From positions 1,426,001 to 1,490,000 of the forward strand of contig NZ_CP087724.1 of NCBI RefSeq assembly GCF_024972755.1: a stretch of DNA of 64,000 bases. The letters run 5' to 3'. Below the pieces are notes generated by a model. That model was given only the letters and a program-made list of their open reading frames with translations. It ran no database searches and had not been told where the DNA came from. The position numbers and the translations under genes were made by a program. The stretch is from Halanaeroarchaeum sp. HSR-CO. GTDB taxonomy: Archaea > Halobacteriota > Halobacteria > Halobacteriales > Halobacteriaceae. Positions 36,035 through 46,930 of this stretch are shown piece by piece (position 1 is the first letter of the stretch; every line of letters starts with the position of its first letter).

Positions 36035-37378
36035 AGGCGGTCGAGGCGAATGCCCCGGGGCTTGACCCCGGGGTTGAAGCCGACACTCTGTGATACAAAC
36101 CATTAAGTTAACATATCCCGAATCAAGAGACAGCGATGGAGTACAGTCATCGCTACCCCGTATATCCGACACAAGAGGTAGCGGCTGAACTGGAACGTCA
36201 CATCGACATTCATCGCCAAGCGTACAACTACACGCTGTACGAGTACGAGAACGTGGACGCCAACAACATCGGCTCCGCGTACAAACACCACTACCGACTC
36301 CCTGGTTGGAAAGACGAGTTCCCCGTCTTCTCAGAGGTTAACTCGAAAGCACTACAACGAACCGTCACACGGTTCTACCAGAACCTCTCGAACCTGAACG
36401 ACCAGAAAGAGAACGGGAACAGGGTAGGGAAACTCAAGTGGAAGTCACCGAGAGAGTTCCAGAGTATGACGTTTTCGCAGTCCGGCTTCGAACTCAAAAA
36501 CACGAGTGGCCGACACGCGACACTCTGTCTCTCCAAAATCGGAGACATCCCTATTCGCTACCACCGCGAAATCCCCGATGAAGCGGACATCAAAGAAGTC
36601 ACAGTCAAGAAAGAGACTACCGGCGACTGGTTCGTCTCCTTCGGCCTCGAAACTGACGACGTTGACCTGCCTGAGAAACCCGACGTGGACTCGCTCGACG
36701 CGAGCAACAGCGTCGGAATTGACCTCGGCATCCTCAACTACATTCACACCTCGGATGGCAAGACTGTGGATTGGCTCGACCTCGAAGACGAGTACGACCG
36801 ACTCCGCCGCGAACAACGCAAGCTGTCTCGCAAGGATAAGGGGTCAAACAACTACGAGAAACAACGCCGAGAAGTAGCGAAGGTCAAGCGGCATATTCGG
36901 CGGAAGGTGCTTGACTACCAGCACAAACTCACGACGTGGCTCGTCCGCGAGTACGACGCTGTATTCGTTGAAGACTTGGACGTGAAGGGGATGTTGGAGC
37001 AGTCGCATAATGCTCGGAACAAGCAGGATGCGGCGTGGCGACAGTTCATCACCCTCCTCGAATACAAGGCTGACCTGTACGGTTGTCACGTCAAGCAGGT
37101 TGAACCCGAAGGGACGACAAAAGAGTGTGCGTCGTGCGGTGTGGAGACGGCGAAGCCTATCTGGGTCAGGGAACACTCCTGCCCCTCGTGTGGGTTTGAG
37201 TGTGACCGTGATGCAAATGCGGCGATGAATGTCCTGCAACGCGGATTTTCTGAGTTAGGGCTGGGATGGCCCGAATCGACGCCTGTGGAGACTGCGCTCC
37301 CTACGGACACCACTACGGTGTCTGCAAAGCGCGTCATCGAAGCAGGAAGCCTCGGGGCTTGAGCCCGAGGCGATTCAC
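36035..37378 (+). mobile_element. IS200/IS605-type element with tnpB only, apparently intact
   Basis: The left end follows TTAC (36031-36034) and has hairpin CCCCGGGG-CTTGA-CCCCGGGG (36053-36073). The right end has CCTCGGGG-CTT-GA-GCCCGAGG (37350-37370) and finishes GCGATTCAC (37378). The right-end boundary was set by comparison with the complete element ending at 55837. There is no tnpA, so it depends on a transposase in trans, for example that of the element at 53828. The guide portion of its omega RNA would be the flank starting at 37379. Confidence 0.8.
36136..37362 (+). CDS. tnpB: TnpB RNA-guided DNA endonuclease
   Basis: A protein of 408 residues, full length. RuvC catalytic residues are visible: Asp196 (GIDLGI), Glu279 (AVFVEDLD) and Asp359 (DRDANAAMN). 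A four-Cys zinc finger uses C331-x2-C334 and C349-x2-C352. An arginine/lysine-rich bridge (RRKVLDYQHK) lies between. TnpB nucleases, ancestors of Cas12, cut DNA next to the TAM using an omega RNA made from the 3' end of the element. The TGA stop (37360-37362) lies inside the right-end hairpin loop, so codons and RNA scaffold overlap. Confidence 0.93.
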   Translation: MEYSHRYPVYPTQEVAAELERHIDIHRQAYNYTLYEYENVDANNIGSAYKHHYRLPGWKDEFPVFSEVNSKALQRTVTRFYQNLSNLNDQKENGNRVGKLKWKSPREFQSMTFSQSGFELKNTSGRHATLCLSKIGDIPIRYHREIPDEADIKEVTVKKETTGDWFVSFGLETDDVDLPEKPDVDSLDASNSVGIDLGILNYIHTSDGKTVDWLDLEDEYDRLRREQRKLSRKDKGSNNYEKQRREVAKVKRHIRRKVLDYQHKLTTWLVREYDAVFVEDLDVKGMLEQSHNARNKQDAAWRQFITLLEYKADLYGCHVKQVEPEGTTKECASCGVETAKPIWVREHSCPSCGFECDRDANAAMNVLQRGFSELGLGWPESTPVETALPTDTTTVSAKRVIEAGSLGA

Positions 37379-39995: not shown

Positions 39996-41087
39996 CTATA
40001 GCTCTCGTTCCACCTCTTCTAAGGCGGTAATCGCCTCTCGGAGATGTGTACGCAATTCAGTCCCGGTATCATCCACCGACTCGGAACCGTCACGCGCCGC
40101 TATCAGTGACTGCAGGTCGACTGCATCCTGCGACCGCGTCCACGTCACGGATTCACCATCGCGAGACGCCTGATCGTCGACGTCATCGAGCCGGCGCTGT
40201 GCGTCGCTCTCTTCGGTCTTCGCTTCCCCAGAAGCGTTGTCGACTGGCCGGGTACCCCGCTTGGGCCGCCCACCGCGATTGAACGCGGCAAGGGGAAAGC
40301 CGTACGCAGCGGCGCGTTTTTGTTTATTGAAACTCGTGCGCCGGGCGATGCCGAGCACCTCGGTGACGTTCTGGCGGTCGACACCGCGGTCGAGTGCCTG
40401 GCGCACCTGTTCGTCTTCGACTCGTTGCACTAACAGCTGCGGGTCGTCAGGAATGTGCCCGCGAGCCGAGTTCTCGATCTGCTCTGCGAGCCCCCATTCC
40501 CCCGTATCGATGTCCTTATCGACGATCTGCCTGTCCCTGGACTCGACGAGATTATCCAGCCCCATCAGCGCCCAGAGGCGCTGACGGACGGATGAGACCG
40601 TGAGATCGGCGGAGAGATTGGAGGCGATATCTCCCGTTCGCGTTGGGCCCTGGCGTTCGAGATAGCGGAGTATCTCGATATCCTGCGGAAGGAGAACGCT
40701 CTGGTCGGCTTCGGTGATCTCGACGGGCGAGTCCTCGGGTGTCGACTGCTGGTGGAGCCAGTTATGGCAGGACCGGCACAGCAGCGTGAGGTTCTGGATA
40801 TCGTGCTCGTCCATCTCAGCGGGATCGCGGTCGATGTGGTGAACCTGCATCGTCGCCAGGCCACCTTGCTCCGGACCGCGTCGACCACATGCCTGACAGC
40901 GATGATCGTACTTATCGAGGACTCGCTGCCGGGTCTCTGCATCGACCGATTCGTTGTACCCGTGCGTGGGGTGCTGGTCCGATGGTGCATCGCTGGATGC
41001 GGTGTCTGTTCGATCCGTGTCGTCGTGCGTGCGTGTTTCTGTCGTCGTCATTTGTGTCGTGATTGGCTTGCTGGATTGGCGATGCAA
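39996..41087 (-). CDS. HNH endonuclease with C-terminal HTH region
   Basis: A protein of 363 residues (or 351 from an ATG at 41051, giving MTTTETRTHDD). A classical HNH domain with zinc: RCQACGRRGPEQGGLATMQVHHIDRDPAEMDEHDIQNLTLLCRSCHNWLH. The middle (LPQDIEILRYLERQGPTRTGDIASNLSADLTVSSVRQRLWALMGLDNLVESRDRQIV) is a winged helix, followed by GVDRQNVTEVLGIARRTSFNKQKRAAAYGFPL and a disordered acidic tail. It is encoded on the same strand as, and 136 bases downstream of, the RAMP-exonuclease operon, so it may be its last gene or an independent defence nuclease. Confidence 0.85.
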   Translation of the reverse strand: MHRQSSKPITTQMTTTETRTHDDTDRTDTASSDAPSDQHPTHGYNESVDAETRQRVLDKYDHRCQACGRRGPEQGGLATMQVHHIDRDPAEMDEHDIQNLTLLCRSCHNWLHQQSTPEDSPVEITEADQSVLLPQDIEILRYLERQGPTRTGDIASNLSADLTVSSVRQRLWALMGLDNLVESRDRQIVDKDIDTGEWGLAEQIENSARGHIPDDPQLLVQRVEDEQVRQALDRGVDRQNVTEVLGIARRTSFNKQKRAAAYGFPLAAFNRGGRPKRGTRPVDNASGEAKTEESDAQRRLDDVDDQASRDGESVTWTRSQDAVDLQSLIAARDGSESVDDTGTELRTHLREAITALEEVEREL

Positions 41088-41223
41088 CGAACGGCTGTGT
41101 GCGTGGGATATCGCTTCAATCGGAGACGGTCATCGCGCCAGTACTCACGACGAATCGGGCGGCACGACCCAGTCACGAACCCGGGTGGGGCCCGTACCGG
41201 ATCGAGCGTTGTCGGCACCCATC

Positions 41224-41886
41224 TCAGGTCGACCTCGTTGGCGTGAGCGATTTGATCTGGAACTCGGATTTCGCACAGTACCGCTCGGCGACCTGGCCGA
41301 GTTCACGCGTTCGCAGGACGTCCGCCACGTTGTGGACGGCGAGGTCTGCGAATCGGCCGTCCTCGAAGGCGGTGACGGCTTCTGCGCTCTCATCGAAGGG
41401 GTCGTGGTCGCCGTGTGTGCCATCGCCCAGCACAGCGTAGGCCGTTGCAAGGTCGCCGTACTCCTCGCCATCGACGGTCGTATTGAACCGGTCGCTGACC
41501 AGCGGCAGCAAGTCGGCGTAGGGGACGTCCTCGAAGGGCCAGGCGATATCCAGCTGGGCGTACCGGGTCCGCAGAAACGGCAGGTCGAAGCCGCCGTTCC
41601 AGCGCTCGCCGTTGTACGCGACCAGCAGAATATCCTCATCGTGCAATCGCCGTTCGACGAAGTCGGCAACGGCCGCCAACACCGCCCGCTCCGATGGATG
41701 GATAGAGACGTTGACCAGCGTCTTCGTCGCGGCCTCCACAACCGCCTCGACGTCGCTGGGCGAGCGCCCGCCGGTCTGGACCATCACACGCACCCCCATC
41801 GACAGTCCAAACCCGATGACCGTCACCTCGTCGTTGGCGTCGAACCCGGTCGTCTCGATATCGAAGGCGACCTGCTCCAGGGCCAT
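41224..41886 (-). CDS. DEDD-type 3'-5' exonuclease in RAMP operon
   Basis: A protein of 220 residues with the RNase H-like exonuclease fold: Asp9 and Glu11 (AFDIETTGF), Asp101 (YNGERWNGGFDLPFLR), a YADLLPL segment (Asp125), and HNVAD (His185, Asp189), giving the complete D-E-D-D set with a DEDDh-like end. It is closest in pattern to PolB-related exonuclease domains. The start codon overlaps the stop of the upstream RAMP gene (ATGA), so it belongs to that operon. I infer that it degrades nucleic acid exposed by the RAMP complex or processes its guide. Confidence 0.82.
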   Translation of the reverse strand: MALEQVAFDIETTGFDANDEVTVIGFGLSMGVRVMVQTGGRSPSDVEAVVEAATKTLVNVSIHPSERAVLAAVADFVERRLHDEDILLVAYNGERWNGGFDLPFLRTRYAQLDIAWPFEDVPYADLLPLVSDRFNTTVDGEEYGDLATAYAVLGDGTHGDHDPFDESAEAVTAFEDGRFADLAVHNVADVLRTRELGQVAERYCAKSEFQIKSLTPTRST

Positions 41887-42821
41887 CAGGACTCACCTCC
41901 CGTCGCAGCGTCTGTACGTTCGGGCACCCGATCAACACTCGCCGGCCGAACCCGTAGCTCGCCGAACCCGAACCGCGAGTGCGTGCCGACACGCAAGACA
42001 CCATTTCTCGCGGTCGCTACCGGGTCGCGTCCGGTGTACGTGAGCACCTGGCCGTGGTCGACCGTCTCGAGCGTGTAGGTCTCGGCCCCATCGACGAGTC
42101 GTGTCTCCCGGCGGCGCAGGCCACCGTCGGGCACGCCCCACCACCAGGGCACCGACTGGTCATCCGCGTCCGGGTGCTCGGTCCGTAGGACATAGGGCGT
42201 GAGCACGTCGAGCTGGTAGGCATCCGCGTCGGCCAGCCGCGAGTAATCGAGGTCCTCCAGCGTTACCAGCTGTGTGTCCGCGACCGACAAACGCCCGAAA
42301 CCGTAATTGCGACTGCCGCCGACGCGCAGGCCTTCCAGGACGTCCGTCGACAGTGGCAGGGCCGCATCGGACCCATCGGTATGCAGATACGCGTGCAGGT
42401 ACCACTGCATCGACCGGCGGTGATTGTGACTCCCCTCGGGCCTGCCGAACCAGCACATATCGGCGAACGCGATGCGATCGCCGTGCTGCTGGAGGTCGAG
42501 GGCGTTATGTGCATCTCGCGGCCGGGAATCCAGGAGCCAGCGCTGGGCCGCGTCGCGGAACACGAACAGGTCTTCGTAGGCCTCGACCGGTGGCAGTGTC
42601 TGGCCCAGCTTGGCCGCATAGCCATCCTGGGAGGCCGCTGGTGGATAGTTGCCGTACTCGCCGGGGACGAACTGGCCGTGGCTCACCTGTAGATTTTTAC
42701 GCACTGCGGCATCGTCGACGCGGCGTGCGATGGCGGTGGCCAGTGCGTTCCCGGTGACGAAGTATGGATGGCCCATGTACGGCGTCTCCAGCTCGAAGAG
42801 GACCTGCTGGATCGCCGTCAT
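41886..42821 (-). CDS. RAMP protein with two glycine-rich loops (Cas5/Csf3-like)
   Basis: A protein of 311 residues from MTAIQQVLFELETPYMGHPY. Two glycine-rich loops typical of RAMP/ferredoxin-like Cas proteins are seen: LRVGGSRNYGFGRLSV (about residue 180) and VLRVGTHSRFGFGELRV (about residue 285). The first 90 residues contain a basic, aromatic stretch VRKNLQVSHGQFVPGEYGNYPP. Such folds bind crRNA handles (Cas5) or process crRNA (Cas6). I assign it as the likely Cas5/Csf3-like subunit because of position after the Cas7-like gene, but a Cas6-type processing role is equally possible. The ATG at 42821 was chosen; a longer frame overlaps the upstream gene. Confidence 0.65.
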   Translation of the reverse strand: MTAIQQVLFELETPYMGHPYFVTGNALATAIARRVDDAAVRKNLQVSHGQFVPGEYGNYPPAASQDGYAAKLGQTLPPVEAYEDLFVFRDAAQRWLLDSRPRDAHNALDLQQHGDRIAFADMCWFGRPEGSHNHRRSMQWYLHAYLHTDGSDAALPLSTDVLEGLRVGGSRNYGFGRLSVADTQLVTLEDLDYSRLADADAYQLDVLTPYVLRTEHPDADDQSVPWWWGVPDGGLRRRETRLVDGAETYTLETVDHGQVLTYTGRDPVATARNGVLRVGTHSRFGFGELRVRPASVDRVPERTDAATGGES

Positions 42822-42864
42822 CGGCGCTTGCCCCCTTCGTTTCGTCTCCACGCGTTGATGTGTA

Positions 42865-43656
42865 TCATCGCCCACCTCCGTCTGTCGCGGCGATGTACTC
42901 CTCGATGAACTGCAGCGCCGTCGACCACGACCGAAGCCGTCGCAGCTGTGCGTCCAGGATACGCCACCGGCGGTCGGCGTCGACATCGATCGGTGACGTC
43001 GGCAGTCGCGCCCAGACGTCCGCGAACGAACGGGTCGGCGCGGCTCCCAGCGATGCAGCTGGACGGCCGTCCGGGTCCGCGGTCACGCGCAGTGATACCG
43101 GGCCCGCCTGCAGTACGGTTCGATGGGGCGTCACTGGCGTGTCAGCATCGTCGACGACCAGCGACAGTGCATCGAATGTCGCGCCGTCGCGGTAATTGGA
43201 CAGTAGTGCCGCCGTCAGCAGGACGTGGTACTTCAGCGACGTGTACGGGTAGTGGGCGGCCTCGTTGAACGCCGCCGCGGCCTTCGAGTCCAGCCACGCC
43301 CTGTGTGCGCGTTCGGGGTCATCAATCTGTGCCAGGTCCCGGGTCGGGGCCCTGAACGCGTCGACGCCCCGCTGGTCTGTTGCGATCTCGCCCGACAAAA
43401 GAGAGAGCCGAAACGGCAGCGCGTGCGCGGGCACGGTCTGCTCGGGGTCACCGCGCGGCCGACTCAGCAAGGCTGCATCGCCGTCCGCGCCGCGGGGCAC
43501 CGTCTCGTTCACGCGGACGCCGGCGGCCGTCTCGCTCGCCGCCGTGTGTGACCGGCCGCGCAGTTTGTGGATATCGTGGCGATACACCGCGAGCATGGGT
43601 GGGACCTCGGTCGGCTGGGCGTCGGTTGCTGTCGTCGCCGGTGACTCCGCGGTCAT
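42865..43656 (-). CDS. Unrecognised protein of RAMP operon
   Basis: A protein of 263 residues with no family recognised. Features: an N-terminal Ala/Thr-rich segment, HDIHKLRGRSHTAAS (basic, His-rich, perhaps RNA-binding), a helical middle (AWLDSKAAAAFNEAAHYPYTSLKYHVLLTAALLSNYRDGA), a beta-rich part (VTPHRTVLQAGPVSLRVTADPDGRPAASLG) and a C-terminal helical segment (RRWRILDAQLRRLRSWSTALQFIEEYI). Start and stop overlap neighbours on the 5' side by four bases. By position between the Cas7-like and Cas5-like genes it could be a small- or large-subunit analogue. Confidence 0.6.
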   Translation of the reverse strand: MTAESPATTATDAQPTEVPPMLAVYRHDIHKLRGRSHTAASETAAGVRVNETVPRGADGDAALLSRPRGDPEQTVPAHALPFRLSLLSGEIATDQRGVDAFRAPTRDLAQIDDPERAHRAWLDSKAAAAFNEAAHYPYTSLKYHVLLTAALLSNYRDGATFDALSLVVDDADTPVTPHRTVLQAGPVSLRVTADPDGRPAASLGAAPTRSFADVWARLPTSPIDVDADRRWRILDAQLRRLRSWSTALQFIEEYIAATDGGGR

Positions 43657-44615
43657 GCCTCCTCACCGTCCAGCGAGGGCATCGGCAGGTCGCCATCACG
43701 CATCGCGGTGCGGGCCTGGAGCGCCCTGACGAACTCGTCGCGGAGCTCCGTCCGCCATCGCTCGTCTTTGTCTTCCATTGCCGAGGTCGTCCCCTGGGCC
43801 CGGTTGAACACGCGACGCACCTCGGCCTCGGTGTACAGTGGGTTCACGACCCAGACGTCCGCGACGCCGGCCCCGAAGTTGCGGGCGCCGCCGAGCTGGA
43901 ATTCGAATTCATCACTGTGGGCATCGAGGAAGGCGACGGCCTCGATGAGCAGGCCAACGAACTCCGGTTTGAGCTCTCGCAGCGTCAGCTTCCACGTGCC
44001 CTCGACGTTCCCGAGCACGTCCCGGTCGGCCTGGCGGAGTGGCTGGCCGCCGTCGTCTTCGTTGCGCGAGCGCACCTGATTCGAGATCTGCCTGAAGTGG
44101 GCTTCCGCTTCGCCATCGAGGACGTCGACGTGACGGCGGATCGGCGAGAAGGATACCGGCCGGCGCAGGAGTTTGCCTGGTTGGGAGCCGAAGCCCCCGA
44201 ACAGGTCGTAGATGACACAGCCATCGTCGTGGTCATCGAGACAGGTCCCTTTCTCGTGATAGCCCGCATCGAGGTCGCGTTCGTACACGTTCGCGCGCAT
44301 GTAGTCCGCGTTGGGCTCGCCCGGGTGGCACGCCGTCGCGCCGGCAGTCTGGACAACCTGTTCGCAGCCGTGTCGGAGCCAGCCTGACAGCGTGAACGGC
44401 GAGATCTGGCCCTCGATCTGGTTCATCGGGTCATCCGCCTCGTAGCGGTCCGCGGAGGCATGATGGCGGTCCGTGACGAGCCCATCCCCGGGGGCCAGCA
44501 GGTCGATTTCGAGGCCGACGTATAGGTCGGGCAGGAGCATTGCATCGACATCGACTGGCGGGTCGACGTCGATGTCGAGATGTGAATCCTGCCACTCGGG
44601 GGTGGTTGTGGTCAT
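43653..44615 (-). CDS. Cas7/Csf2-like RAMP backbone protein
   Basis: A protein of 320 residues. RAMP features in order: a first strand LYVGLEIDLLAPGDGLVTDR; IEGQISPFTLSGWLRHGCEQVV, corresponding to the Cas7/Csm3/Cmr4 motif iPgsslkG-LR; CVIYDLFGGFGSQPGKLLRRPVSFSP, like the lFG..s..G.l.f.d segment of Csm3-type proteins; and the C-terminal glycine-rich loop FEFQLGGARNFGAGVADVWVVN. These indicate a Cas7-family subunit that would polymerise along a guide RNA; the size and neighbour order suggest type IV Csf2. His/Asp pairs (TDRHHASAD) near the N-terminus could give Csm3-like RNA cleavage (speculative). Confidence 0.72.
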   Translation of the reverse strand: MTTTTPEWQDSHLDIDVDPPVDVDAMLLPDLYVGLEIDLLAPGDGLVTDRHHASADRYEADDPMNQIEGQISPFTLSGWLRHGCEQVVQTAGATACHPGEPNADYMRANVYERDLDAGYHEKGTCLDDHDDGCVIYDLFGGFGSQPGKLLRRPVSFSPIRRHVDVLDGEAEAHFRQISNQVRSRNEDDGGQPLRQADRDVLGNVEGTWKLTLRELKPEFVGLLIEAVAFLDAHSDEFEFQLGGARNFGAGVADVWVVNPLYTEAEVRRVFNRAQGTTSAMEDKDERWRTELRDEFVRALQARTAMRDGDLPMPSLDGEEA

Positions 44616-45109
44616 TATCGGTCACCCCCGAGTCCCGGGTGGGCGGGCTGGTTCGCTCGGGGGCGGGGTTCGCCCAGTGAAGTCCTCGGTTGGGCGTCCC
44701 GGGCGGTCACTCCCTGGTCAGGGTCAGTGTCGGACAGCGTCTTCTGTGCCGACTTCGTCGACGGCTCGCTCACTGCCAGTATCGCTGGGTCGGCGATCAC
44801 GAGCGACGGCGATTCTGCCTCGGAGGGTTGCTGGAGTCGGCCCTCCACCAGCAGTTCGCGCACGCCCAGGGTGAATTCCGTCGGGTGGGCGTGTGTTTTA
44901 TTTCCGCAGAGTATGTTGCCCACCTGGAACTTCGATTCGCCAGCCGGGCGGAATACGTACGCAACGACCGTATCGCCTGGTTCGAAAGAAGAGCCGCACA
45001 CTTGACACGTCGCGGCCCCTACCCCGGGCGAATATTGTAATAATTCTGATATGTCTTCAATTAACCGGGCACCGATAGCCTCTTGCTTCGGGGATTCTGA
45101 CTTATCCAT
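44615..45109 (-). CDS. Zinc-finger protein opening RAMP operon (Csf1-like)
   Basis: A protein of 164 residues. The first 45 residues are helical, followed by a zinc finger: C-x2-C at ATCQVCGSSFEPGD and a second pair NILCGNKTHAHPTEF (Cys plus His ligands). The C-terminal third is disordered and Pro/Arg-rich. Type IV CRISPR loci start with a small zinc-finger protein, Csf1, at the position of the large subunit; size, zinc finger and gene order fit this, but direct sequence similarity cannot be tested here. The stop overlaps the next start by one base (TAATG). Confidence 0.55.
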   Translation of the reverse strand: MDKSESPKQEAIGARLIEDISELLQYSPGVGAATCQVCGSSFEPGDTVVAYVFRPAGESKFQVGNILCGNKTHAHPTEFTLGVRELLVEGRLQQPSEAESPSLVIADPAILAVSEPSTKSAQKTLSDTDPDQGVTARDAQPRTSLGEPRPRANQPAHPGLGGDR

Positions 45110-45120
45110 GGGTTTTCACC

Positions 45121-45203
45121 TGGTGTGAAACCCCAGTCCGAGTGTCCTAGCACTCGGGCGTTCTCTCAGTAGAACTGCCCCAGGGGACTGAGCTTTCACA
45201 CCA
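45121..45203 (-). promoter_or_regulatory. 83-base branched inverted-repeat structure before RAMP operon
   Basis: An outer perfect 10-base stem (TGGTGTGAAA 45121-45130 with TTTCACACCA 45194-45203) encloses two hairpins: CCGAGTG/CACTCGG (45138-45144, 45151-45157, 6-base loop) and CTCAGT/ACTGAG (45165-45170, 45187-45192). It lies only 11 bases upstream of the first ATG of the operon. As RNA it would be a three-way junction in the 5' leader; as DNA it could be a compound operator. It also shows a second palindrome TTTCAC-CTGG-TGTGAAA at its proximal edge. Confidence 0.6.
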
Positions 45204-45281
45204 TCTCCTACATCGTGTAATGGTATAAGCTTTGCCCATCACCGACATAGGAAATGGGGAATGACCCATCACCTACATAGG
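45201..45281 (+). promoter_or_regulatory. Repeated operator-like motifs before divergent HTH gene
   Basis: CCCATCACCGACATAGG (45235-45251) and CCCATCACCTACATAGG (45265-45281) are near-identical 17-base direct repeats exactly 30 bases apart; a weaker copy CCATCTCCTACATCG starts at 45201. Each is roughly palindromic around CTACATAG. The spacing puts sites on the same DNA face. They are placed between the RAMP operon and the HTH gene at 45295 and are probable binding sites for that regulator. Confidence 0.55.
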
Positions 45282-45294
45282 TAGTGTCCACGAA

Positions 45295-45537
45295 ATGGAT
45301 ATCGTGCCGGGAAAAGATCGAGAGGAAGAGTCTGGGAGATATACAACGAGCTACCCAGATTCTGATTTCATCGATGCCATTCAATCACTTGGCGGGATGG
45401 CAGGAACGTCGGAGATAGCCGAAACTGTCGGCTGCACCCGTCGGACGGCGTACACGCGACTCCAGTCACTCGAATCCGAAGGTCAGGTCACCAGCAGAAA
45501 AGTCGGGAACTCTCTACTCTGGAGCGTCTCCGACTGA
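45295..45537 (+). CDS. Small HTH regulator divergent from RAMP operon
   Basis: A protein of 80 residues. Residues 23-78 form a winged helix: DSDFIDAIQSLGGMAGTSEIAETVGCTRRTAYTRLQSLESEGQVTSRKVGNSLLWSVS. It begins 14 bases after repeated operator-like motifs, so autoregulation and control of the divergent RAMP operon are plausible. Confidence 0.82.
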   Translation: MDIVPGKDREEESGRYTTSYPDSDFIDAIQSLGGMAGTSEIAETVGCTRRTAYTRLQSLESEGQVTSRKVGNSLLWSVSD

Positions 45538-46204: not shown

Positions 46205-46930
46205 CTACAGCCGCTGGACAATCCCATCTGCGTTGTCCGTCGCCGTATGAAGCCTGACGACTTCATCGAAATTCACGAACTCGACACGGTCACGAATCAC
46301 CTCGAACCCACTCTGCCCCAACCGCTTTTTGAACTGATCCTTCCGGGTCTCGTCAGCGACGATAATGAAGTTCGTGTAGTAATCCTGCAGGTCGAGGAAT
46401 TTGTGAAGCGAATTCTGGAAGTCTGTGGAGAACTCGACCTCCAGCAGGCTATCCGGCATTCGGCGGTGGTTGAACCAGACGACGTCGACCGTCCTTGCTC
46501 GACGGACCATCCGCTTGTACCCGAACTCCGGAATGCTCTCCAACGTCCTGACGTCTGCCAGAGTCCGATCTAGGAAGGCTTGGTTCTTGTCTTGAGATGG
46601 GATCCAGGTTTCCGTCGCCCGCATATTCCCGATCTCCGCCAGCAGCCCCTGGTAATAGGTGTGATCGTACTGCTGTTCCTTCTCGGGTGTGACCCCCTCG
46701 GTGCGGAGGTGCTCGGGTAACTCCACTCGGTATTCCTCCAGCCCCCAGAGTCCGGGGCGAATCTTGAAGAACTGATCCTGGCGCTGGACGATCCTACGAA
46801 TGCTGGCATTCGGTGTTTTCGTGCCCCATTCGCTCTCCTTGACGTGGGGCGCGTGCTCGTACAGATGCTTTAGCGTCGCATATCCACCGTTTTCCTCCAT
46901 CACCTGCTCCACGGCTTCGTATTGATACAT
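46205..46930 (-). CDS. HTH plus PD-(D/E)XK-like nuclease, putative restriction protein
   Basis: A protein of 241 residues. The N-terminal 70 residues (YEAVEQVMEENGGYATLKHLYEHAP...NASIRRIVQRQDQFFKIRPGLWGLEEY) form a HARE-HTH-like winged helix. The C-terminal half contains TVDVVWFNHRRMPDSLLEVEFSTDFQNSLHKFLDLQDYYTNFIIVADETRKDQFKKRL. A D...E-x-E pattern on adjacent strands followed by helices is reminiscent of PD-(D/E)XK nucleases, though the Lys is not evident. It is next to the wrecked methyltransferase gene, so it may be the orphan restriction subunit. Confidence 0.65.
   Translation of the reverse strand: MYQYEAVEQVMEENGGYATLKHLYEHAPHVKESEWGTKTPNASIRRIVQRQDQFFKIRPGLWGLEEYRVELPEHLRTEGVTPEKEQQYDHTYYQGLLAEIGNMRATETWIPSQDKNQAFLDRTLADVRTLESIPEFGYKRMVRRARTVDVVWFNHRRMPDSLLEVEFSTDFQNSLHKFLDLQDYYTNFIIVADETRKDQFKKRLGQSGFEVIRDRVEFVNFDEVVRLHTATDNADGIVQRL

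What the first reader, a model, noticed from the sequence alone, without database searches (positions are those of the whole stretch)
39996..45109. Candidate type IV-like RAMP effector operon with an exonuclease and an HNH nuclease, without a CRISPR array
Five minus-strand genes from 45109 to 41224, four of the junctions overlapping or 43 bases apart, encode a Csf1-like zinc-finger protein, a Cas7-like RAMP protein (SPFTLSGWLR, LFGGFG, LGGARNFGAG), an unrecognised 263-residue protein, a second RAMP protein with two glycine-rich loops and a DEDD exonuclease; an HNH nuclease follows. Gene order resembles type IV (csf1-csf2-csf3), yet the DinG helicase of IV-A, the CysH-like gene of IV-B, a Cas6, cas1/cas2 and a CRISPR array are absent. 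An exonuclease as the added effector would be new to me. The assignments rest on motifs only and the middle gene is unknown.
Basis: partly seen in the sequence, partly recalled or inferred. Interest (0 to 1): 0.9.

Follow-up and report, generated by a model that had tools for sequence, protein, structure and literature searches.

The report
Known haloarchaeal CRISPR derivative (HRAMP)
The operon is a member of HRAMP, an already described CRISPR offshoot of salt-loving archaea that has lost its CRISPR array, and the one clearly new thing found here is a structured RNA at the front of its transcript that also sits in front of many other haloarchaeal genes.

Summary
In detail: five overlapping minus-strand genes (45109-41224) and an HNH gene (41051-39996). 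The type IV reading does not hold. The set matches HRAMP (haloarchaeal RAMP, Makarova et al. 2019), described as array-less, derived from type III, and paired mostly with HNH or PD-(D/E)xK nucleases. A relative of the Cas7-like protein was found in 103 of 391 Halobacteria genomes, and the order ZF-Cas7-middle-Cas5-exonuclease-nuclease recurs in dozens.

By profile the second RAMP protein is Cmr3-like (44/44 relatives) and the first Csm3-like; structure comparison confirms the Cas7 fold. The middle protein most resembles Cas10, weakly. The window's complete genome has no Cas1, Cas6, type I Cas7 or Csm1_B domain.

New here: (1) a structured leader RNA (45107-45197) with strong compensatory changes, no Rfam match, and copies in many haloarchaeal genomes beside a divergent winged-helix gene; (2) a sharply bounded 17-nt noncoding motif upstream of the HNH gene (48/54 HNH loci, 0/7 PD-(D/E)xK loci); (3) a short HRAMP form ending at a transposon terminal repeat.

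No guide RNA was shown. RNA-directed defence is likely but inferred.

The parts
44615..45109 (-). ZF: 164-aa zinc-finger protein (CxxC ...
   Evidence: conserved first gene in 43/50 loci; no Pfam/NCBIfam/PADLOC hit
43653..44615 (-). Cas7-like RAMP subunit (320 aa)
   Evidence: Foldseek best hits are Cas7 of types IV-A3, VII, III-A, best E 3e-5, prob 1.00 (model pLDDT 69); Csm3 profiles in up to 16/45 relatives, best E 7.5e-7
42865..43656 (-). middle protein (263 aa); most likely a reduced Cas10-like subunit with an invariant N-terminal RHDxHK motif
   Evidence: 35 invariant columns in 42 relatives; model pLDDT 91; 34 of 46 Foldseek hits are Cas10-type chains but best E only 0.13; hhalign to Cas10 not significant, aligned at the HD motif
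42818..42868 (-). 16-codon ORF (MIHINAWRRNEGGKRR) overlapping the middle stop and the Cas5-like start; matches the end of a longer small gene with DTGNGVC repeats in other loci
   Evidence: sequence: one frame open (0 stops) in most loci with the repeats while other frames have stops
41886..42821 (-). Cas5-like RAMP subunit with two glycine-rich loops (311 aa), Cmr3-like
   Evidence: Cmr3 profile match in 44/44 relatives, best E 7.4e-8
41224..41886 (-). DEDD-type 3'-5' exonuclease (220 aa)
   Evidence: Pfam RNase_H_2 E 1.7e-6; PADLOC DEDDh E 2e-5
41104..41120 (-). E3 motif ATTGAAGCGATATCCCA, noncoding, 17 nt, about 70 nt upstream of the HNH start
   Evidence: 48/54 HNH loci, 0/7 PD-(D/E)xK loci; sharp information boundary
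39996..41051 (-). HNH nuclease with helix-turn-helix-like C-terminal region (351 aa from ATG)
   Evidence: Pfam HNH E 1.8e-9; exchanged for a PD-(D/E)xK-like protein in 7 loci
45107..45197 (-). E1 structured leader RNA: three-way junction (P1, P2, P3) plus a competing GGGUUC/GAACCC-type hairpin beside the ZF start codon
   Evidence: model R1 75 bits in the window
45295..45537 (+). divergent small winged-helix regulator (80 aa), partner of the E1 leader
   Evidence: related divergent gene within 900 nt upstream in 42/62 loci and beside most non-HRAMP E1 copies
45235..45286 (.). two 22-nt direct repeats between the divergent gene and the TATA-like box, candidate operator
   Evidence: TATA-like box and inverted repeats seen

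Best explanation
This is an HRAMP locus of the long (variant 1) form: a type III-derived, array-less class 1 CRISPR derivative. Shown by sequence or structure: a Cas7-like and a Cmr3-like Cas5 subunit, a DEDD exonuclease, an HNH nuclease exchangeable with a PD-(D/E)xK-like protein, tight operon conservation, and absence of adaptation genes in the genome. Inferred: Cas7, Cas5 and the Cas10-like middle protein form a small ribonucleoprotein on an RNA not encoded by a CRISPR array. On recognising foreign nucleic acid, that complex directs cleavage by the associated endonuclease (HNH or PD-(D/E)xK) and degradation by the exonuclease, as a defence against viruses or plasmids. Also inferred: expression is held in check by a divergent winged-helix protein and by the structured leader E1, which can switch between a three-way junction and a hairpin next to the first start codon.
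For: Same component set and taxonomic range as the published HRAMP description (PMC8730458; PMC12669027). Relatives in 103/391 Halobacteria genomes with conserved order. Cmr3 and Csm3 profile matches. Cas7 fold. Cas10-type hits for the middle protein. Exonuclease and HNH domains. Nuclease exchange HNH versus PD-(D/E)xK. No Cas1, type I Cas7, Cas6 or Csm1_B in the own genome. Leader covariation: 96.7% of cells paired, 56 double changes against 15.7 in shuffles, 0/500.
Against: No guide RNA was identified, so RNA guidance is an analogy to class 1 complexes. The Cas7 model is of modest confidence (pLDDT 69). The Cas10 link of the middle protein is below significance (best E 0.13; hhalign probability 0.6%, E 0.091). 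The original HRAMP paper is not held, so membership rests on later summaries and my memory of its abstract. Defence function has no direct evidence here.
Confidence: 0.6

Rival explanations
1. A new type IV CRISPR-Cas variant (csf1-csf2-csf3 order) with an exonuclease instead of DinG or CysH.
For: Foldseek top hit of the Cas7-like model is Cas7 of a type IV-A3 complex, E 3.2e-5; gene order superficially similar.
Against: Type VII and III Cas7 score almost equally. Sequence profiles give Cmr3 and Csm3. No Csf1 match for the zinc-finger protein. The family is already placed with type III derivatives (PMC12669027).
Confidence: 0.05
2. An RNA-guided system with its own fixed guide: the E3 motif (AUUGAAGC followed by GAUAYNYCA) is a solitary crRNA-like element whose first 8 nt equal the haloarchaeal crRNA 5' handle and whose next 9 nt act as a conserved seed.
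For: E3 is noncoding and nearly invariant, almost confined to HRAMP loci in 391 genomes, and the free position is nt 6 of the putative spacer, the base flipped out in class 1 duplexes. 19 of 35 motif genomes lack type I Cas7, so it would not serve host Cascade.
Against: No conserved target for the seed in the loci. E3 tracks the HNH gene, not the Cas proteins: absent from all 7 PD-(D/E)xK loci. The match to the handle is 7-8 nt, noticed after the fact and recalled from memory. Two similar-looking leads proved to be coding repeats and a transposon end.
Confidence: 0.08
3. E3 is a DNA site for the HNH protein, or for a regulator of it: an operator, or a recognition or recombination site of an exchangeable nuclease cassette. 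This concerns E3 only and is compatible with the best explanation.
For: Present with HNH and not with the alternative nuclease (48/54 versus 0/7); about 66-82 nt upstream of the HNH start in most loci; sharply bounded 17-nt core; the HNH protein carries helix-turn-helix-like regions (sequence reading).
Against: Not palindromic; one locus (L051) keeps E3 without a recognised HNH gene; a stand-alone HNH relative (L246) has no E3.
Confidence: 0.4
4. The operon is not a defence system but a gene-regulation or mobile-element maintenance module.
For: The short variant 2 ends at a transposon terminal repeat with a DDE transposase upstream in some loci; the E1 leader plus winged-helix module also precedes unrelated genes.
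Against: Variant 1 carries two nuclease genes with recognisable domains and an exchangeable nuclease, typical of defence; patchy distribution over 46 of 86 genera.
Confidence: 0.25

Closest known systems
HRAMP (haloarchaeal RAMP; Makarova et al. 2019, doi 10.1093/femsle/fnz079, summarised in PMC8730458 and PMC12669027)
   Same: Diverged Cas5 and Cas7 homologues, uncharacterised conserved protein, associated nucleases of HNH or PD-(D/E)xK type, no array, Haloarchaea
   Different: No defining difference found. The DEDD exonuclease, leader RNA, small gene and Cas10-like reading of the middle protein are not mentioned in the summaries read; I could not check the original paper.
Type III CRISPR-Cas (Csm/Cmr)
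   Same: Cmr3-like Cas5, Csm3-like Cas7, possible Cas10-derived subunit
   Different: No full-length Cas10, no Cas6, no array; added DEDD and HNH nucleases
ARAMP of Asgard archaea
   Same: Described as distantly related array-less CRISPR derivatives (PMC8730458)
   Different: Most ARAMP loci carry a Cas1 homologue; none in this genome
Type IV CRISPR-Cas
   Same: Superficial gene order and Cas7 fold
   Different: No Csf1 profile match, no DinG or CysH in the operon; profiles favour type III

Membership tests
HRAMP | Cas7 homologue diverged from known types | tested here: met
   Cas7 fold by Foldseek, weak Csm3 profile matches, no Pfam hit
HRAMP | Cas5 homologue diverged from known types | tested here: met
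   Cmr3 profile in 44/44 relatives, no Pfam hit for the window protein
HRAMP | associated HNH or PD-(D/E)xK nuclease | tested here: met
   HNH by Pfam; seven loci with an alternative nuclease whose PD-(D/E)xK assignment is by motif only (no Pfam match)
HRAMP | no CRISPR array and no adaptation module | tested here: met
   No array-like repeats near the locus; no Cas1 or Cas6 in the genome. Genome-wide array search not run.
HRAMP | found in many Haloarchaea | tested here: met
   103/391 genomes, 46/86 genera
HRAMP | direct identity with the published HRAMP proteins | not testable with these tools
   Original paper and its sequences not held
Type IV CRISPR-Cas | Csf1 large subunit | tested here: not met
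   No match for the 164-aa protein in three libraries
Type IV CRISPR-Cas | type IV Cas5/Cas7 by profile | tested here: not met
   Type III profiles far better
Type III CRISPR-Cas | canonical full-length Cas10 | tested here: not met
   Csm1_B absent in 17 HRAMP genomes; middle protein only remotely Cas10-like
Type III CRISPR-Cas | Csm3/Cmr4-type Cas7 and Cmr3/Csm4-type Cas5 | tested here: met

The most novel reading that the evidence does not exclude
HRAMP carries its own conserved noncoding RNA (the E3 element, or an RNA processed from the E1 leader) that is loaded into the Cas7-Cas5 complex as a fixed guide or scaffold, making it an innate, array-free RNA-guided nuclease system in which the nuclease is exchangeable.
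Probability: 0.1. Interest if true: 0.88.

Novelty: new member of a known kind. Interest (0 to 1): 0.5.

Why it matters
HRAMP has no reported experiment that I know of, and the open question is how a CRISPR-derived complex works without an array. The results give specific, testable handles: a possible Cas10 ancestry of the unknown subunit, a leader RNA with strong compensatory evidence that heads the operon and recurs in front of many other haloarchaeal genes, and a 17-nt motif that travels with the HNH gene. The leader RNA has no match in Rfam 15 (window region searched) and is of interest on its own as a widespread haloarchaeal RNA family.

Tried and rejected
(1) Type IV membership: rejected by profiles. 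(2) A CRISPR-like array: a 24-nt repeat with about 48-nt spacing between the middle and Cas5-like genes in many loci looked like a decaying array. Spacings were multiples of three, and one reading frame is open through the repeats (0 stops in most loci, with the other frames interrupted), so it is a repeated peptide (DTGNGVC) in a small gene. (3) A second guide-like element downstream of the short HRAMP variant: abrupt loss of similarity 84-109 nt after the Cas5 stop, an inverted copy in L070 and L071 and a DDE transposase show it is a transposon terminal repeat. (4) E3 as a CreA-like RNA for host Cascade: rejected because the window's own genome and 18 other motif genomes lack type I Cas7 and no conserved target was found. 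(5) E3 as coding sequence: rejected, no consistent frame, and invariant wobble positions including ATA, a rare codon in these genomes (codon rarity from general knowledge). (6) Solved-structure sequence searches with the three alignments gave nothing. (7) The E1 leader as an HRAMP-specific guide: weakened, because it also precedes unrelated genes.
Full report
Observation. The start of the HNH gene is more likely the ATG at 41051. The 43-nt gap between the middle and Cas5-like genes is part of a 16-codon ORF that overlaps both neighbours.

Identity. A literature search found that array-less loci with diverged Cas5 and Cas7 homologues and added nucleases in Haloarchaea are known as HRAMP (PMC8730458). 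A 2025 classification calls HRAMP and ARAMP array-less systems derived from type III, most often with HNH or PD-(D/E)xK nucleases (PMC12669027). The original paper (doi 10.1093/femsle/fnz079) is not held, so identity is inferred from these summaries. The Cas7-like protein has relatives in 103 of 391 Halobacteria genomes and 46 of 86 genera. In 50 neighbourhoods the order zinc finger, Cas7, middle, Cas5, exonuclease, HNH is strongly conserved; a later set extends this.

Proteins. All 44 Cas5-like relatives match Cmr3 profiles, best E 7.4e-8, with only one weak type IV Cas5 match. The Cas7-like family matches Csm3 profiles, best E 7.5e-7. Its model, of modest confidence (pLDDT 69), finds Cas7 of types IV-A3, VII and III first, E 3e-5. 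The middle protein was modelled well (pLDDT 91). Of its 46 structural hits, 34 are Cas10-type chains (Csm1/Cmr2, judged by entry and chain length). None is significant (best E 0.13, probability 0.77), and many are repeats of the same protein. Its invariant N-terminal RHDxHK motif aligns with the HD motif LLHDIGK of Cas10 in a profile comparison, but that alignment is not significant either. A reduced Cas10 is therefore a reasoned guess, not a result. The exonuclease and HNH assignments are supported by Pfam and PADLOC. The zinc-finger protein matches nothing, so the name Csf1 is not justified.

Nuclease exchange. In seven loci the HNH gene is replaced by one protein family with a PD-(D/E)xK-like pattern; Pfam has no match for it. 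This agrees with the published description of HRAMP.

No adaptation genes. The window's own complete genome lacks Cas1, type I Cas7 and Cas6, and 17 HRAMP genomes lack Csm1_B. No array-like repeat lies near the locus. I did not run an array finder over the whole genome.

Leader RNA (E1). The roughly 90 nt directly upstream of the first start codon fold into a three-way junction (window: -46.5 kcal/mol, z -5.3), seen in most of 57 loci folded one by one. On an alignment of 33 sequences, the long closing stem and one hairpin are 96.7% paired, with 56 double changes against 15.7 in shuffles (0 of 500), and fall to 21-48% when slid. The second hairpin pairs in 179 of 198 positions against 135 expected. 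A competing hairpin, GGGUUC with GAACCC beside the start codon, pairs in 94% of cells, which suggests a switch. Rfam 15 has no meaningful match in this region. A covariance model finds the window copy at 75 bits and matches in 88 of 145 genomes at E 0.01 or better; 50 listed matches reach 45 bits or more, many away from HRAMP (E-values are rough). Non-HRAMP copies usually share a small divergent winged-helix gene and precede varied genes, including one HNH relative and one zinc-finger relative. The window has the same divergent gene at 45295-45537, and 42 of 62 variant 1 loci have one. E1 is therefore best read as part of a regulatory module, not as a guide.

E3 motif. Between the exonuclease and HNH genes lies ATTGAAGCGATAYNYCA, nearly invariant where flanks diverge. 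A pattern search of 391 genomes found 37 sites in 35 genomes and none for the reversed control. Four of those genomes showed no HRAMP genes around the site, compatible with chance. The motif is noncoding. It is present in 48 of 54 HNH loci and none of 7 PD-(D/E)xK loci. Its first 8 nt equal the crRNA 5' handle of haloarchaeal type I-B systems (from memory) and position 6 after it is free, as in class 1 guides. But no target was found and the motif follows the HNH gene, so an HNH-linked DNA site is at least as likely.

Corrections made on the way. Array-like repeats between the middle and Cas5-like genes are coding. A conserved element after the short HRAMP variant is a transposon end. Both had looked like guide RNAs, which is why the E3 guide reading is scored low.

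Verdict. A well-conserved member of a known but, to my knowledge, experimentally unexplored family. The most likely mechanism is a type III-like ribonucleoprotein that directs associated nucleases against foreign nucleic acid; the RNA is unknown. The leader RNA is the most solid new result.

Noticed in passing
window 45107-45197 and L230-L249: A structured leader RNA with a divergent winged-helix gene is widespread in Halobacteria in front of many unrelated genes; no Rfam match in the window region. Possibly a new haloarchaeal regulatory RNA family.
   Followed up: partly
L068-L078, L185-L223: Short HRAMP variant (Cas7, middle, Cas5 only) whose similarity ends 84-109 nt after Cas5 in a conserved terminal repeat; an inverted copy and a DDE transposase (Pfam DDE_Tnp_1, E 2.4e-11) lie upstream in some loci, so this variant appears to ride a transposon.
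   Followed up: partly
L033, L035, L036, L044, L065, L116, L127 (between middle and Cas5-like genes): A variable small gene with repeated DTGNGVC peptides separated mostly by multiples of three bases; cysteine-rich in L065. In the window it is reduced to 16 codons.
   Followed up: partly
L246, ORF starting about 250 nt after the leader RNA: A stand-alone relative of the HRAMP HNH nuclease downstream of an E1-type leader, without other HRAMP genes.
   Followed up: no
L051, downstream of the exonuclease gene: E3 motif kept although no HNH or PD-(D/E)xK gene was recognised; the next gene encodes a 234-aa cysteine-containing protein of unknown role.
   Followed up: no
window 36136-37362: A TnpB-like protein (zinc-ribbon CxxC pairs, read by eye) near the HRAMP locus.
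   Followed up: no
window 46205-46930: Protein with an N-terminal HARE-HTH-like domain (Pfam E 3e-5, just below cut-off) and a restriction-enzyme-like match (PADLOC REase_II E 3.2e-7), a possible neighbouring defence gene; not found beside the other HRAMP loci examined.
   Followed up: no
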